From Bacteroidaceae bacterium (GTDB lineage: Bacteria > Bacteroidota > Bacteroidia > Bacteroidales > Bacteroidaceae), in the NCBI GenBank assembly GCA_024398435.1, contig JAKSJD010000003.1, positions 62,001 to 126,000 on the forward strand: a DNA stretch of 64,000 bases, read 5' to 3'. The notes below the pieces were generated by a model. It was not told where the DNA came from. It did no database searches and saw only the letters and a list, made by a program, of their open reading frames with translations. The translations under genes were made by a program, and so were the position numbers. Shown here piece after piece: positions 36,489 through 40,781 of the stretch; the stretch's first letter is position 1, and each line of letters begins with the position of its first letter.

Positions 36489-37031
36489 TCAAAGAATTGA
36501 ATTATTTTTGTTCTGGTCAACCCAGATAAGTCGTGAAGTGTTGTAGCCACGCCTTTCGGCTTCCTTTAGAATGGTCTTTTTTGTTGAGTTGTTGATTTGA
36601 GGAGTTCGTGCGAGAATCCAGAGATAATCATCCGAACTTCCGCCAACAAGAGCGTGACTGTAATCATCAGCAAGCATTAGTATTCTATAGTCGGAATAGA
36701 AAGGCCAGAAGAACGAAACCCGAAGAAGTCCTGCTGTATTTGTAAGTTTTGCTTTCCCGTTTGAAGTTTTCAGTTTTCCATTCTTCCAGCCGGTATTTGC
36801 TACTTTGATTGTACCATCAGTATTTTGGGAATAGAAAGCGCTTGTGTTGGTTTGTCCCTTTTCGAATCGATGGTCGAATCTTGCGATTTCGTACCAACGT
36901 CCCATATACTTTCCAATGTTATTCACCTTGATAGGAGAGTTGTTGATTCCGTCGCCAGCCGCTGCTTGAACGAAAGGAATGAATGAGCAAACGATTGCTG
37001 CTAAAATAGTTCTTGTTTTCATACTCGTCAT
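36489..37031 (-). CDS. Lipocalin-family protein (Blc-like)
   Basis: A 180-residue exported lipocalin. The signal peptide is about MKTRTILAAIVCSFIPFVQA (start could be Met4 at 37022). The core signature is GKYMGRWYEIARFDHRFEKG, with the conserved GxW, then FFWPFYSDYRILMLADDYSHALVGG and WILARTP, as in bacterial Blc and apolipoprotein D-like proteins. No lipobox cysteine is seen, unlike E. coli Blc. It may bind lipids or hydrophobic ligands in the periplasm. A TAACTTTG box near 37078-37085 on the minus strand is its likely promoter. Confidence 0.92.
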   Translation of the reverse strand: MTSMKTRTILAAIVCSFIPFVQAAAGDGINNSPIKVNNIGKYMGRWYEIARFDHRFEKGQTNTSAFYSQNTDGTIKVANTGWKNGKLKTSNGKAKLTNTAGLLRVSFFWPFYSDYRILMLADDYSHALVGGSSDDYLWILARTPQINNSTKKTILKEAERRGYNTSRLIWVDQNKNNSIL

Positions 37032-37310
37032 GTTTTAATTTGTGTTTGTGTTGTCTGTCTTTTTTGTTTGACGCTGCAAAGTTACGGATTCTATATTCTT
37101 CTTATATCATTATTTTTCACTTATTTTTCGATAGTTAATATTAGCCATTTCGATAGTCAGCGAATATGGTGATTATCTCGTGCGTATATATATAATATAA
37201 TGTGTATTCTATCACGAATAAATACGCGACAAATAATAGTTTTTGTTAGAAATATTGTTTTAAAATGCAAATAATTCTCAATTTGACATCCTGCATTATA
37301 AATTATTTCA

Positions 37311-37318
37311 TATCTTTG
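37311..37318 (+). promoter_or_regulatory. Putative -7 box of the BspA-like gene
   Basis: TATCTTTG lies 235 bases before the start codon, so the predicted 5' leader is about 230 nt. A TTTG at 37282-37285 is 25 bases upstream, longer than the usual spacing. Confidence 0.6.
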
Positions 37319-37379
37319 TATCGCATTTGGGATAATTTCCGTTTGCAGACATATTGAAGAAGCGTTAGCTTGTATTCTT

Positions 37380-37490
37380 GTTTCTGAAATCGCCAATTAA
37401 AGAAGTATCCAAGAATGAAGTTGATGTTCACGCTTTGCGTGGGCTATTACTTGTTTATGGATACAGGGTGTTTGGCGATACCTCAGAAAC
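37380..37490 (+). promoter_or_regulatory. Structured 5' leader RNA of the BspA-like gene
   Basis: Four nested stems are visible: GTTTCTGA (37380-37387) with TCAGAAAC (37483-37490); TCGCCAA (37390-37396) with TTGGCGA (37472-37478); GTATCCA (37405-37411) with TGGATAC (37458-37464); and GTTCACGC (37426-37433) with GCGTGGGC (37437-37444) around a UUU loop. All pairs are Watson-Crick apart from two G-U pairs in the tip. Arrangement and position suggest a cis-regulatory RNA. I do not recognise it as a named class. Confidence 0.7.
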
Positions 37491-37553
37491 GTAGATGAAG
37501 TGATTTGTCCACGTTTTTTTGTGCAGATAGATAACTAATAAAATACATTCATT

Positions 37554-40500
37554 ATGAAAAAGATTATAACTTTATTATCGGTAATATGCTGTTGCGTTGG
37601 TGTAATGGCGGAAGATATTCCCAATGATGAGATTTGGTATGAAGCAAGTGCAAAATTGAATGAAACGACCTCGTCATCATCATCCGGACTTCATACTAAA
37701 GCTTTTAATGCATCTATCCAATCCCATACATTTAGTAATGGTAAAGGTGTCGTTAAATTTAATAATACCGTCACAAGTATAGGAAATTATGCATTCTATC
37801 GTTGCAGTGGTTTGACCTCAGTCACGATACCGAATTCCGTGGAGAGCATTGGATATGATGCATTCTATAGATGCAATTGTTTGACATCTGTCACGATTCC
37901 AAATTCCGTGATGAGCATAGGAACGGGTGCATTCTCTGATTGCAGTGGCTTGATATCAGTTGCAATAGGAAATTCCGTGACGAGCATAGGAACGAGTGCA
38001 TTCTCTAATTGCAGTGGTTTGACATCAGTCGCGATACCGAATTCCGTGATGAGCATAGGAGATTATGCATTCTATGGTTGCATCAGTTTGACTTCTATCG
38101 AGATACCAAATTCCGTGACTAGCATAGGATATGAAGCATTCTCTGGTTGCAGTGGCTTTACTTCAATTGAGATACCAAATTCTGTTACGAGCATAGGAGG
38201 TGCTGCCTTCTACGGTTGCAGTGGTGTAACTTCAATAATATGGGATTCAAATGTTTCCCCAAATTGTTTGACTCAATATTGTAAAAACACACTTAGTACT
38301 CTTGTGTTGGGAGATAATATTACGAGCATAGGAGCAAGTGCGTTCTCTGATTGCAGTGGTTTGACCTCAGTCACGATACCGAATTCTGTGATGAACATAG
38401 GAGATTGTGCATTCTCTAATTGCAGTAGCTTGACTTCAATATATATACCAAATACTGTTACGAGCATAGGAGGTTCTGCCTTTTACGGCTGCAGTGGTTT
38501 GACATCAGTCGCGATACCGAATTCCGTGATGAGCATAGGAGATTATGCATTCTCTAATTGCAGTAGCTTGACTTCAATATATATACCAAATTCTGTTACG
38601 AGCATAGGAAGTTCTGCCTTTTACGGCTGCAGTGGTGTTACTTCAATAACATGGGACTCAAACGTATCCCCAAATTGTTTGACTCAATATTGTAAAAACA
38701 CACTTAGCACTCTTGTGTTGGGAGATAATATTACGAGCATAGGAGCGAGTGCGTTCTCTGATTGCAGTGGCTTGATATCAATAACGATACCAGAATCCGT
38801 TATTAGTATTGAAAACAATGCTTTCTATGGCTGTAGTGGTTTGATATCAATTGAGATACCGAATTCCGTGACGAGCATAGGAACTTATGCATTCCAGAAT
38901 TGCAGTAGTTTGATGTCATTAGTAGTACCTGGTACAGTAAAAGAAATTGGGTCTGGTGCTTTTAGTGGATGTTCGAGTCTTCGCTCAGCAGGACCAATCG
39001 GCAGTGGATGTTTCTATGAATTTGGTTGGACCGATGAAATTCCTGATTATGCGTTCTCGGGTTGTGATGGATTGACGCGAGTAACATTGCCTTCTTCTAT
39101 TACCAGCATAGGGGGCGGTGCATTCTCTAGTTGCAGTGGTTTGACCTCAATCGAGATTCTAAATTCCGTGACTAGCATAGGAAGTTCTGCCTTTTACGGC
39201 TGCAGTGGTTTGGCATCTGTAACGATAGGCAATTCCGTGACGAGCATAGGAGAGAGTGCATTCGATGGTTGCCGCAATATTGAGTCGCTATATTGGGATT
39301 CAAATGTTTCTCCATATTGTTTGACCCAGTATTGTAAAAACAACCTAAAAACTGTAGTATTGGGAGATAATATTACGAGTATAGGCAGTAGAGCATTCTC
39401 GGGTTGCAGCGTCTTGACTTCAATAATAATCCCTAATTCTGTTACAAACATAGGAGATTATGCATTTAATAATTGTTCGGGACTGAAATCAATACAAATG
39501 TCTGCAAATATCCAAGAGGTAGGCTCTCATGCGTTTGATGGGTGCAATGTGTTTGAAAGTGAACGATTGGAAATCGGCCAGTTGTATGCTAAATTTAAAA
39601 CAAGTACAATTTTTACTTCAAGTGCAGGAATACTGGTGAAGATTAATAATGATGAAGCAAATGCAACAGATGGCATCATAATTGTAAAAGATAAACCTAA
39701 TACGTATTTTTCCGGCCCTTGTAAGGTATGTTGTAATGGAACTGTTATATACCAATCGGATGTTAACTATAGAACGCATAGTTTGCAGCCAAATTTGACT
39801 TATGAGTCAAATCCTACACAAATCTTAATATCGTCTGTTTCTTATGTGGAAGAGGATGCAAAAGTAGTTAAAACCGAAGTACAGAATCCAATTACAGGCG
39901 AATATGAAACTGGAGGAGCTTTGCGATTGACAAATCTTCCTCCAAACTCATCATATTATATCCCGTATAGAGTGTATTATGGAACAGGAAAGGATGATTA
40001 CGAAGGAGGTAGCAACTATGTTTATACAAATAGCTTGACACTGAAAACTGAAACTCCAAAAGTCGTAAACAGTACAAGTGCAGTTGTTGCTGCTACTACT
40101 AACATTCTGGATGATGAAGTTTCTGTAGGTTTTGAATGGAGAAAGATAGATGCTCCAGCGGAGATTCCTTCAAAATCTGGTGGTGCTGTAATATATAATG
40201 GCCGAATGGAGGGAAAGATAATGAATCTGCAAACAGATAGCTATTATAAGGTTCGTGCATATTATGAATCACTAGAAGGCAAGAAATACTATGGCGAATG
40301 GGTAGGTTTCGACCCAAGTGATTTCTCATACTTTGAACCAACAGTTCATACATACGCAATGGCATCAGCACAGACAAGCAACAGTGTGAAGGTAAGAGGA
40401 TATGCAGTTGCAGGTACGGATGACTTGGACGACCAGGGCTTCGAATATAATGAAGTTGGTTCTATTGCAGAGCCAAAGCGAGTGAGTGCAACGGGACAGT

Positions 40501-40781
40501 TGATGACTGCAACACTGGAAGGTTTGAAATATAATACTTCATACAATGTTCGTGCTTATGTGAAGACATCAAGCAAAACAGTTTATGGTGAAACTGTCAC
40601 ATTCAAGACTCCTTACACTGACGGAATCGAAGAAATCACGGTTGATGCAGTACAAGAACGAACAATACAAGGAGTTTATGATATGCAAGGCAGATTAATC
40701 AGTCGCGATTCAAACATAGATTTGTCAACATTGAAGCAAGGTATTTATATTATCAATGGTAAGAAGGTGCTGATTAAATAA
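37554..40781 (+). CDS. BspA-like leucine-rich-repeat surface protein
   Basis: A 1075-residue exported protein. After a signal peptide (about 1-20, LLSVICCCVGVMA) come about 23 BspA/LRR_5 repeats (residues about 60-680) built on a 23-residue unit like SVTSIGDYAFYGCSGLTSIE. Three longer 'WDSNVSPxCLTQYCKN' inserts interrupt the array at similar spacing. Residues about 690-1030 form beta-rich modules (FN3-like), and the C-terminus STLKQGIYIINGKKVLIK resembles a type IX sorting tail. Long near-identical DNA repeats make it prone to recombination. BspA proteins bind host or matrix proteins; the ligand here is unknown. Confidence 0.9.
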   Translation: MKKIITLLSVICCCVGVMAEDIPNDEIWYEASAKLNETTSSSSSGLHTKAFNASIQSHTFSNGKGVVKFNNTVTSIGNYAFYRCSGLTSVTIPNSVESIGYDAFYRCNCLTSVTIPNSVMSIGTGAFSDCSGLISVAIGNSVTSIGTSAFSNCSGLTSVAIPNSVMSIGDYAFYGCISLTSIEIPNSVTSIGYEAFSGCSGFTSIEIPNSVTSIGGAAFYGCSGVTSIIWDSNVSPNCLTQYCKNTLSTLVLGDNITSIGASAFSDCSGLTSVTIPNSVMNIGDCAFSNCSSLTSIYIPNTVTSIGGSAFYGCSGLTSVAIPNSVMSIGDYAFSNCSSLTSIYIPNSVTSIGSSAFYGCSGVTSITWDSNVSPNCLTQYCKNTLSTLVLGDNITSIGASAFSDCSGLISITIPESVISIENNAFYGCSGLISIEIPNSVTSIGTYAFQNCSSLMSLVVPGTVKEIGSGAFSGCSSLRSAGPIGSGCFYEFGWTDEIPDYAFSGCDGLTRVTLPSSITSIGGGAFSSCSGLTSIEILNSVTSIGSSAFYGCSGLASVTIGNSVTSIGESAFDGCRNIESLYWDSNVSPYCLTQYCKNNLKTVVLGDNITSIGSRAFSGCSVLTSIIIPNSVTNIGDYAFNNCSGLKSIQMSANIQEVGSHAFDGCNVFESERLEIGQLYAKFKTSTIFTSSAGILVKINNDEANATDGIIIVKDKPNTYFSGPCKVCCNGTVIYQSDVNYRTHSLQPNLTYESNPTQILISSVSYVEEDAKVVKTEVQNPITGEYETGGALRLTNLPPNSSYYIPYRVYYGTGKDDYEGGSNYVYTNSLTLKTETPKVVNSTSAVVAATTNILDDEVSVGFEWRKIDAPAEIPSKSGGAVIYNGRMEGKIMNLQTDSYYKVRAYYESLEGKKYYGEWVGFDPSDFSYFEPTVHTYAMASAQTSNSVKVRGYAVAGTDDLDDQGFEYNEVGSIAEPKRVSATGQLMTATLEGLKYNTSYNVRAYVKTSSKTVYGETVTFKTPYTDGIEEITVDAVQERTIQGVYDMQGRLISRDSNIDLSTLKQGIYIINGKKVLIK
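38012..39390 (+). repeat. Near-identical intragenic repeats of the LRR array
   Basis: A 60-bp segment at about 38012-38073 recurs almost unchanged at 38494-38555, and a ~120-bp segment at 38235-38355 recurs at 38645-38765, with a more diverged third copy near 39294-39390. Differences are mostly synonymous. Confidence 0.85.

What the first reader, a model, noticed from the sequence alone, without database searches (positions are those of the whole stretch)
37380..37490. Nested multi-stem RNA leader before a BspA-like adhesin gene
Three successive long-range stems (8, 7 and 7 bp) enclose an 8-bp tip with a UUU loop, all within a predicted 230-nt leader that begins near a TATCTTTG box. Each arm is perfectly complementary apart from two G-U pairs in the tip. 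This is far more order than an AT-rich Bacteroidales intergenic region usually shows, and suggests a cis-acting RNA that controls a surface protein. I do not know a named riboswitch or RNA family with this layout. Basis: the pairings are seen directly; function is inferred.
Basis: partly seen in the sequence, partly recalled or inferred. Interest (0 to 1): 0.78.

Follow-up and report, generated by a model that had tools for sequence, protein, structure and literature searches.

The report
Two-state RNA leader before surface-protein genes
The hairpin is part of an apparently undescribed family of RNA leaders, found across Bacteroidota in front of many unrelated and often exported proteins, whose strands are kept complementary for two mutually exclusive folds, so it is probably an RNA switch for surface and accessory genes.

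Summary
Diverged copies occur in 26 of 101 relatives by DNA search and 88 of 395 class genomes by covariance model; ten genomes chosen because they had hits carry 3-14 copies each. On 100 distinct copies helices P2-P6 are 95% paired, 36 of 38 pairs show changes on both sides, and 0 of 500 shuffles reach the observed values. G.U outnumbers A.C 362 to 48, so the + strand RNA is what is selected. No Rfam family matches.
The copies are 5' leaders: a TAnnTTTG box upstream (150 of 173), a same-strand ORF downstream (153 of 169, median 54 nt after). The genes share no family; BspA is one of many, but signal-like N-termini are enriched (88 of 142 against 153 of 576).
New here: most conserved strands have two partners. 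A.D, Y.Z and B.C close one long hairpin; alternatively A+X pairs with Y+B' (~20 bp) and C with D, directly before a U-tract. Both sets covary. Best reading: a bistable attenuator-like leader. Switching, signal and polarity are inferred, not shown.

The parts
37311..37318 (+). Bacteroidota-type promoter box TAnnTTTG (TATCTTTG); that this motif is the phylum's -7 box is recalled
   Evidence: Sequence; the motif occurs within 190 nt upstream in 150 of 173 copies, shuffled expectation 25.3
37325..37553 (+). inferred 5' leader up to the ATG of the BspA-like gene; start site inferred from the box, not mapped
37358..37519 (+). conserved element (match to covariance model R1, 159.8 bits; this copy was in the model's seed)
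37358..37380 (+). strand A+X. State I: A (AAGCGT 37360-37365) pairs with D. State II: A+X (AGAAGCGTTAGCTTGTATTCTTG) pairs with Y+B'
   Evidence: A.D; X.Y; A.B'; duplex energies; prefix fold
37380..37387 (+). P2 5' arm (partner 37483-37490)
37390..37396 (+). P3 5' arm (partner 37472-37478)
37405..37411 (+). P4 5' arm (partner 37458-37464)
37410..37427 (+). strand Y and start of B (CAAGAATGAAGTTGATGT): pairs with Z in state I, with A+X in state II
37426..37433 (+). strand B, 5' arm of tip helix P6
37437..37444 (+). strand C, 3' arm of P6 in state I; pairs with D in state II
37445..37457 (+). strand Z, 3' side of P5 in state I
37458..37464 (+). P4 3' arm
37467..37482 (+). GGT-(P3 3' arm)-ACC: possible small hairpin whose loop would kiss the P3 5' arm
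   Evidence: Moderate support: of 174 distinct copies the third pair is T-A 154, C-G 5, T-G 3, G-C 1, A-T 1, unpaired G-A 5 and A-A 1, not located 4
37472..37478 (+). P3 3' arm
37483..37490 (+). P2 3' arm
37507..37514 (+). strand D (GTCCACGT): pairs with A in state I, with C in state II
37514..37520 (+). U-tract directly after D
   Evidence: longest T run >=5 in 73 of 100 copies
37554..40781 (+). downstream gene, 1075 aa BspA-type leucine-rich-repeat protein with signal-like N-terminus
   Evidence: named from its repeat pattern; its first 320 codons were among the 140 proteins, where LRR_8 and LRR_5 are the commonest hits

Best explanation
A ~200-nt cis-acting leader RNA built as a two-state switch. 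State I (ground state): the 5' half (A, P2, P3, P4, Y, B) pairs end to end with the 3' half (C, Z, P4', P3', P2', D) into one long hairpin. State II: each half folds on itself. A+X pairs with Y and the start of B (~20 bp, available first as the RNA is made), and C pairs with D in a GC-rich 7-8 bp helix directly followed by a U-tract, which looks like an intrinsic terminator about 54 nt before the start codon. I infer transcription attenuation: state II stops transcription, and exchange into the long hairpin, perhaps seeded by loop-loop pairing of P3, takes D away from C and lets RNA polymerase read into the gene. Shown by comparison: the family, the RNA strand, the leader position, conservation of both pairing sets. 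Inferred: that they interconvert, that C.D terminates, which state is ON, and what signal or protein decides.
For: Nested set: 95.0% of cells paired, 36 of 38 pairs changed on both sides, 923 such cells against 244 shuffled, 0/500; structure-blind RNAalifold already finds P3 and P6. Alternative set, absent from the model used to align: C.D 89.9% paired, 7 of 8 pairs double-changed, 0/500 on all five measures, and 27 of 27 copies with a non-consensus C have at least 6 bp with their own D; own C-D helix better than swapped in 82 of 96, worse in 14. X.Y 73.6% paired, 58 double-changed cells against 30, 0/500. A.B' 93.3% paired, 12 cells against 4.9, 1/500; own A-B' better than swapped in 72 of 96, worse in 24. 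Whole (A+X):(Y+B') duplex -17.1 against -12.1 kcal/mol with swapped partners, own better in 89 of 96. A.D 92.3%, 5 of 6 double-changed, 20 cells against 4.3. B has U at its third base in 83 of 93 (opposite G in 90 of 93) and B.C has twice the G.U of C.D (1.72 against 0.84 per copy), so D could displace B. RNA truncated just after C folds X.Y in 95 of 96; with X from other copies 274 of 383. Long hairpin -64.6, forced C.D -52.2 kcal/mol on average, -55.7 against -50.1 for the window copy. Columns with two partners (A, B', C, D, Y; 26 columns) have a mean majority base of 88%, P2 and P4 (one partner; 24 columns) 51%. U-tract after D, promoter box before, ORF 54 nt after.
Against: No transcript ends or termination data. 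D also pairs with a strand between the U-tract and the ATG in about half the copies (53 of 100 own against 23% swapped); that strand exists only in read-through RNA, which points to a role after transcription. The window copy does not reach that threshold. A simple terminator scan of the window flags the tip hairpin (a T-rich stretch follows it), not the D region. For X.Y the number of pairs with double changes is not above shuffles (8 against 7.3, 178/500); a first A-B test that left out the bases just before B was negative (own better in 41 of 96, worse in 55). X and P3 have one partner yet are 79% and 77% conserved, and Y with two only 73%, so double pairing does not explain all conservation. 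Part of the A.B', A.D, B.C, C.D complementarity follows from the other three; changes in the GGG/CCC part (for example L096, L091, L133) show C.D independently. Alignment A5 was fitted to P2-P6, which favours those helices.
Confidence: 0.5

Rival explanations
1. Leader acting after transcription: the long hairpin, with D paired to the strand just before the ATG (P7) in read-through RNA, sets translation initiation or mRNA stability; the U-tract is only the loop of P7.
For: D pairs with the downstream strand in 53 of 100 copies against 23% swapped and 18% shuffled, e.g. AATGTCCC/GGGACATT in L041 and L055; tight 54-nt spacing to the ATG.
Against: About half the copies, including the window copy, lack that helix at this threshold, and in a looser test own beats swapped in only 64 of 100; it does not explain conservation of C.D and A+X.Y+B'.
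Confidence: 0.27
2. A ligand-sensing riboswitch of a new class in which a small molecule stabilises one of the two folds, with a broad regulon as for second-messenger riboswitches (comparison recalled).
For: Several copies in one genome (3-14 in ten genomes chosen for hits), conserved GAAA and GGT/ACC flanks around P3.
Against: Much of the conservation lies in strands with two partners; the helices at the junction vary freely; downstream genes share no pathway.
Confidence: 0.12
3. A trans-acting small RNA gene that happens to lie upstream of other genes.
For: Own promoter box and terminator-like end.
Against: Same-strand ORF in 153 of 169, at tight spacing; unrelated genes each keep a copy.
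Confidence: 0.06
4. A DNA-level repeat (mobile hairpin, recombination site) not selected as RNA.
For: Multi-copy; homologous blocks of promoter plus leader precede unrelated genes; some copies are on viral contigs and one lies behind a recombinase gene in a plasmid record.
Against: G.U 362 against A.C 48 on the + strand; leader DNA 87-89% identical where the following proteins are 57-60% identical (L045 against L112 and L115); position tied to gene starts.
Confidence: 0.05

Closest known systems
Transcription attenuators with terminator/antiterminator exchange (trp-type leaders, riboswitch expression platforms); recalled, not searched as a family
   Same: Promoter-proximal leader, mutually exclusive pairings, GC-rich helix directly before a U-tract, gene start tens of nt downstream
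   Different: The exchange involves nearly the entire RNA (both halves re-fold), the terminator arm C lies about 60 nt upstream of D (62 in the window), no leader peptide or known ligand core was recognised, and the downstream genes have no common pathway
CopA/CopT and RNAI/RNAII type loop-loop antisense pairing (recalled)
   Same: Two hairpins with complementary loops that could kiss and then extend into a long duplex
   Different: Both partners are in one transcript, in cis; kissing is suggested by flanking GAAA/TTTC and GGT/ACC pairs but not shown
Rfam families of Bacteroidota (Flavo-1, Bacteroidales-1, Bacteroides-1, Bacteroid-trp, 6S-flavo)
   Same: Structured RNAs reported from Bacteroidota (table in PMC2864571, passages seen)
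   Different: No cmscan match at gathering score on the window or on 20 diverse loci holding copies; only three chance-level hits to other families up to E = 5 on 37150-37650
Candidate structured RNAs of human microbiomes (PMC8040213, passages seen)
   Same: Large catalogue, includes Bacteroidota candidates near gene starts
   Different: No description in the passages seen fits; the supplementary tables could not be read, so this family may be listed there without a described function

Membership tests
Any Rfam 15 family | cmscan score at or above the gathering cut-off | tested here: not met
   0 matches on the window; 20 loci gave one tRNA only; three hits at E 1.3-2.5 on 37150-37650, all far below their gathering scores
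Transcription attenuator | located between promoter and gene on the same strand | tested here: met
   Promoter box 150 of 173; same-strand ORF 153 of 169
Transcription attenuator | mutually exclusive conserved pairings | tested here: met
Transcription attenuator | GC-rich helix followed by a U-tract | tested here: met
   C.D then T run of at least 5 in 73 of 100; the local-hairpin scan does not flag it, as its loop limit is 8 and these arms are about 60 nt apart
Transcription attenuator | measured premature termination that responds to a signal | not testable with these tools
   No transcript data available
Riboswitch | conserved ligand-binding core and downstream genes of one pathway | tested here: inconclusive
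   Downstream genes share no family; conserved flanks of P3 could be a core or a kissing motif
   LRR_5 in 6, LRR_8 in 7 of 140 proteins scanned; an LRR cluster within 3 kb of 18 of 178 elements, 8 of them as first gene
Mobile repeat (REP/MITE type) | target-site duplication or cognate transposase | not tested
   Only homology blocks between copies were compared

The most novel reading that the evidence does not exclude
A transferable promoter-plus-leader module, spread through Bacteroidota, that places unrelated exported and accessory genes (adhesin-like LRR proteins, WG-repeat proteins, lipoproteins, DNA methyltransferases, genes on viral contigs) under one common control by an RNA whose two halves exchange most of their partners, possibly through an intramolecular kissing complex: a new class of regulatory RNA with a trans factor or signal still to be found.
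Probability: 0.35. Interest if true: 0.86.

Novelty: new variant of a known kind. Interest (0 to 1): 0.74.

Why it matters
Bacteroidota dominate the gut and rumen, and few of their cis-regulatory RNAs have known functions (both recalled). A leader shared by surface and accessory genes that are otherwise unrelated would reveal a regulon that gene annotation cannot show, and would give a common handle on expression of adhesin-like proteins, SusC-like receptors and cargo of mobile elements. The conservation pattern (88% majority base in strands with two partners, 51% in P2 and P4) also makes it a natural example of selection on two folds at once, directly testable by mutate-and-rescue.

Tried and rejected
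Rfam, at gathering score and permissive: nothing. Plasmid and phage collections with the window element: no match; with Bacteroidales-type copies 1 and 4 plasmid records and one weak, unannotated phage record. Literature: eight searches and passages of PMC9723704, PMC2864571, PMC8040213, PMC7366714, PMC10994844; no description found, but most subscription papers and all supplements were out of reach. PMC6414381 was seen only as a search listing (the look-up failed).

Idea that stems are a private address code (paralogues in one genome avoiding each other): compared P2+P4 identity of same-genome and different-genome pairs at equal backbone identity (59 copies). No consistent difference (0.39/0.40, 0.43/0.43, 0.48/0.54, 0.57/0.54, 0.77/0.56 by rising backbone identity; the last bin has 2 and 7 pairs). 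P3 was lower within genomes in one bin (0.69 against 0.89) and not in the others. Not supported.

A common downstream pathway or defence role: rejected; two type III methyltransferases and two DEDD exonucleases occur among 140, no general pattern.

Correction made on checking: I had counted X among strands with two partners; it has one. One search recounts without it and shows the exceptions (P3 77%, X 79%).

Dropped rows: L003 (same place as L001), L022 (cut 5') and L025 (middle deleted) left out of A1; L002, L027, L032 then held out of model R1 and recovered later (42.4, 74.2, 47.0 bits); weak antisense hits ignored (the element is nearly palindromic); 9 elements with under 400 nt of downstream DNA and 4 duplicate places left out. 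One search reported 119 stretches but gave 80 loci, all chosen by a conserved P3, so P3 variability is understated in A3 and A5. One search took 140 of 152 distinct downstream proteins, at most 320 codons each. The signal-like rule is a crude hydrophobicity test, and some first genes are paralogues.

Full report
What was checked. They are there base for base. The 230-nt leader folds at -66.8 kcal/mol, z = -4.85, and the conserved part 37358-37519 at -55.7, z = -6.03, with 0 of 200 shuffles as good in each case. A 180-aa ORF starts at 37031 on the other strand and a 1075-aa BspA-type LRR protein starts at 37554.

It is a family. DNA search of 101 relatives found copies in 26, the long matches at 69-85% identity. 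MAFFT alignment of 29 copies and RNAalifold, given no structure, already showed helix P3 with changes on both sides at all seven pairs. A covariance model (R1) made from 26 copies with helices P2-P6 only found 88 of 395 genomes of the class and 33 of 296 in a draw over the phylum, four of them outside the class (the draws overlap). Ten genomes picked because they had hits hold 4, 12, 7, 6, 14, 10, 7, 6, 4 and 3 copies when up to 150 candidates each are scored; the window's own genome has four. Rfam has no match.

It is selected as an RNA. On 100 distinct copies (alignment A5) 95.0% of the cells of P2-P6 are standard pairs, 36 of 38 pairs have changes on both sides, 923 cells against 244 in shuffles, 0 of 500 shuffles as high, and sliding the partner by one to three columns drops paired cells to 29-47%. 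A5 was fitted to this structure, which helps it. In the pair columns G.U outnumbers A.C 362 to 48 (235 to 48 without the two wobble-rich pairs), as expected for RNA of this strand.

It is a leader. A TAnnTTTG box lies within 190 nt upstream of 150 of 173 copies (shuffled mean 25.3), 102 of these 150 at 40-70 nt before the element. A same-strand ORF (at least 60-70 aa) begins downstream in 153 of 169 testable copies, median 54 nt, quartiles 45 and 69; of 152 distinct ones 136 have at least 100 aa; on the other side 32 of 168 have a divergent ORF of at least 100 aa within 350 nt. A copy outside the class (L236) also has an ORF 56 nt after the element. At three related loci (L045 unnamed, L112 Parabacteroides goldsteinii, L115 P. 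faecis) compared in two pairs, the leader DNA is 87-89% identical, while the following genes give at most one 49-nt DNA match and their proteins are 57-60% identical.

It is not specific to BspA. Of 140 downstream proteins, LRR_8 hits 7, LRR_5 6, WG repeats 4, LRR_4 4, dockerin 3, others fewer; PADLOC and NCBIfam give no theme. Clustering neighbours within 3 kb of 178 copies puts LRR/BspA proteins near 18 and WG-repeat proteins near 11. What many share is a signal-like N-terminus: 88 of 142 by a simple hydrophobicity rule, against 153 of 576 other neighbouring ORFs (odds ratio 4.5, p = 8e-15; the rule is crude and paralogues are not removed). In genome G390 promoter plus leader are homologous over 12 aligned copies, while the proteins behind 13 copies show no BLASTP match to each other at 1e-3; the same holds for L203 and L206 from different families, whose leader block is 87% identical. 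So the module seems to move between genes, or genes move behind it.

Two folds. Folding the nascent part of the window copy (37358-37446) showed a long helix that the nested structure does not contain: AGAAGCGTTAGCTTGTATTCTTG with CAAGAATGAAGTTGATGT. In relatives such as L008 the match is nearly complete over about 20 bp. Over 96 copies, the duplex of A+X with Y and the start of B has mean energy -17.1 kcal/mol, -12.1 with partners from other copies, -6.8 with shuffled partners; own beats swapped in 89 of 96. Pair counts agree: X.Y 73.6% paired, 58 double-changed cells against 30 (the count of pairs with double changes, 8 against 7.3, is not significant), A.B' 93.3% paired with 12 against 4.9. 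An earlier A-B test that omitted the bases just before B was negative (41 of 96 better, 55 worse); with them it is 72 against 24. On the other half, C pairs with D: 89.9% paired, 7 of 8 pairs double-changed, and 27 of 27 copies with a non-consensus C keep at least 6 bp with their own D, such as GCGCAGG/CCTGCGC in L096, GCATGGAT/ATCCATGC in L133 and GGGTGG/CCACCC in L053; own beats swapped in 82 of 96. D also pairs with A to close the long hairpin (92.3%, 5 of 6 double-changed). None of A.D, C.D, X.Y or A.B' was in the model that made the alignment. B carries a U at its third base in 83 of 93 copies, opposite a G in 90 of 93 (G.U in B.C 1.72 per copy, in C.D 0.84), so D could outcompete B for C. 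In the window copy C.D is -12.0, B.C -10.5, A.D -8.9 and the A+X duplex -19.4 kcal/mol. The 26 columns with two partners have a mean majority base of 88%, the 24 of P2 and P4 51%: much of what looked like sequence conservation may be the cost of pairing twice. It is not the whole story: P3 (77%) and X (79%) have one partner and Y (73%) two.

Possible kissing. P3 is flanked by GAAA/TTTC on its 5' arm and GGT/ACC on its 3' arm. The GGT/ACC pair becomes GGC/GCC in five copies and GGG/CCC in one; six copies have an unpaired combination and four could not be placed (174 in all). The formal count is weaker (92.0% paired, 8 double-changed cells against 2.2, covariation score reached by 16 of 500 shuffles), and GAAA/TTTC shows only a modest own-over-swapped excess (67 of 100). 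A loop-loop contact that seeds the exchange is a suggestion only.

Third partner of D. In 53 of 100 copies D also pairs with a strand between the U-tract and the ATG, against 23% with swapped and 18% with shuffled downstream sequence. The window copy does not. This helix can exist only in RNA that has passed the U-tract, so it counts against a purely transcriptional role.

Mechanism. RNA truncated after C folds X.Y in 95 of 96 copies (274 of 383 with X from other copies); the complete element prefers the long hairpin by 12.4 kcal/mol on average over a nested fold with C.D forced, by 5.6 for the window copy. I read this as a kinetic attenuator: the 5' hairpin can form first, C.D followed by the U-tract stops transcription unless the halves exchange into the long hairpin in time. 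Polarity, signal and factor are unknown. Translation or stability control is the main rival.

Known or new. No Rfam match, and eight literature searches with passages from five papers found no description (calls listed under Tried and rejected). I could not read the supplements of PMC8040213, which lists thousands of candidates, so a catalogue entry may exist. As a kind it is a structured leader; what is unusual is the near whole-molecule exchange, the breadth across unrelated genes, and the phylum-wide range.

Noticed in passing
L068 11004-11191, L069 11642-11823, L070 5153-5333 (viral contigs), L209 2465-2647: Copies on viral contigs and one in genome G029 share related neighbour ORFs on the opposite strand (clusters of four elements) that look like phage structural genes (my impression, no family search), and precede small lipoprotein-like or membrane-protein ORFs, like independently transcribed prophage cargo (term recalled).
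   Followed up: partly
L232 3216-4262 (Bacteroides finegoldii plasmid record); L231 3214-4075; L223: A gene annotated as recombinase family lies just upstream of the promoter region in L231 and L232, with DUF5640 or lipocalin ORFs behind. The full element is confirmed by R1 in L232 (46.8 bits) but not in L231. L223 has a recombinase-like ORF 376 nt upstream (label from its sequence).
   Followed up: partly
L094, L108, L127, L134, L129: Element plus a DEDD exonuclease-like gene: blocks 80-95% identical to L127 in records named Dysgonomonas, Parabacteroides, Candidatus Merdenecus and a Prevotellaceae MAG, in several behind a relaxase-like ORF (label recalled), suggesting recent transfer.
   Followed up: partly
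L090 5006-5195 and 5382-5552; L145 3841-4031 and 4216-4388: Two copies in tandem before one gene in Butyricimonas records.
   Followed up: no
L025 1417-1550: A copy lacking the stretch from C to the P4 3' arm while its ends remain; no ORF behind it passed the filter.
   Followed up: no
L233, L234, L056, L065: In one group of genomes of the class (f97) the element precedes similar SusC-like ORFs at a longer distance, roughly 230-280 nt (TIGR04056 in 2 of 140 proteins).
   Followed up: no
L150, L141, L102, L100: A family of short ORFs in Prevotella/Prevotellaceae records (sharing a LPADVLKKLNELLEQLHQ-like stretch) follows the element; function unknown.
   Followed up: no
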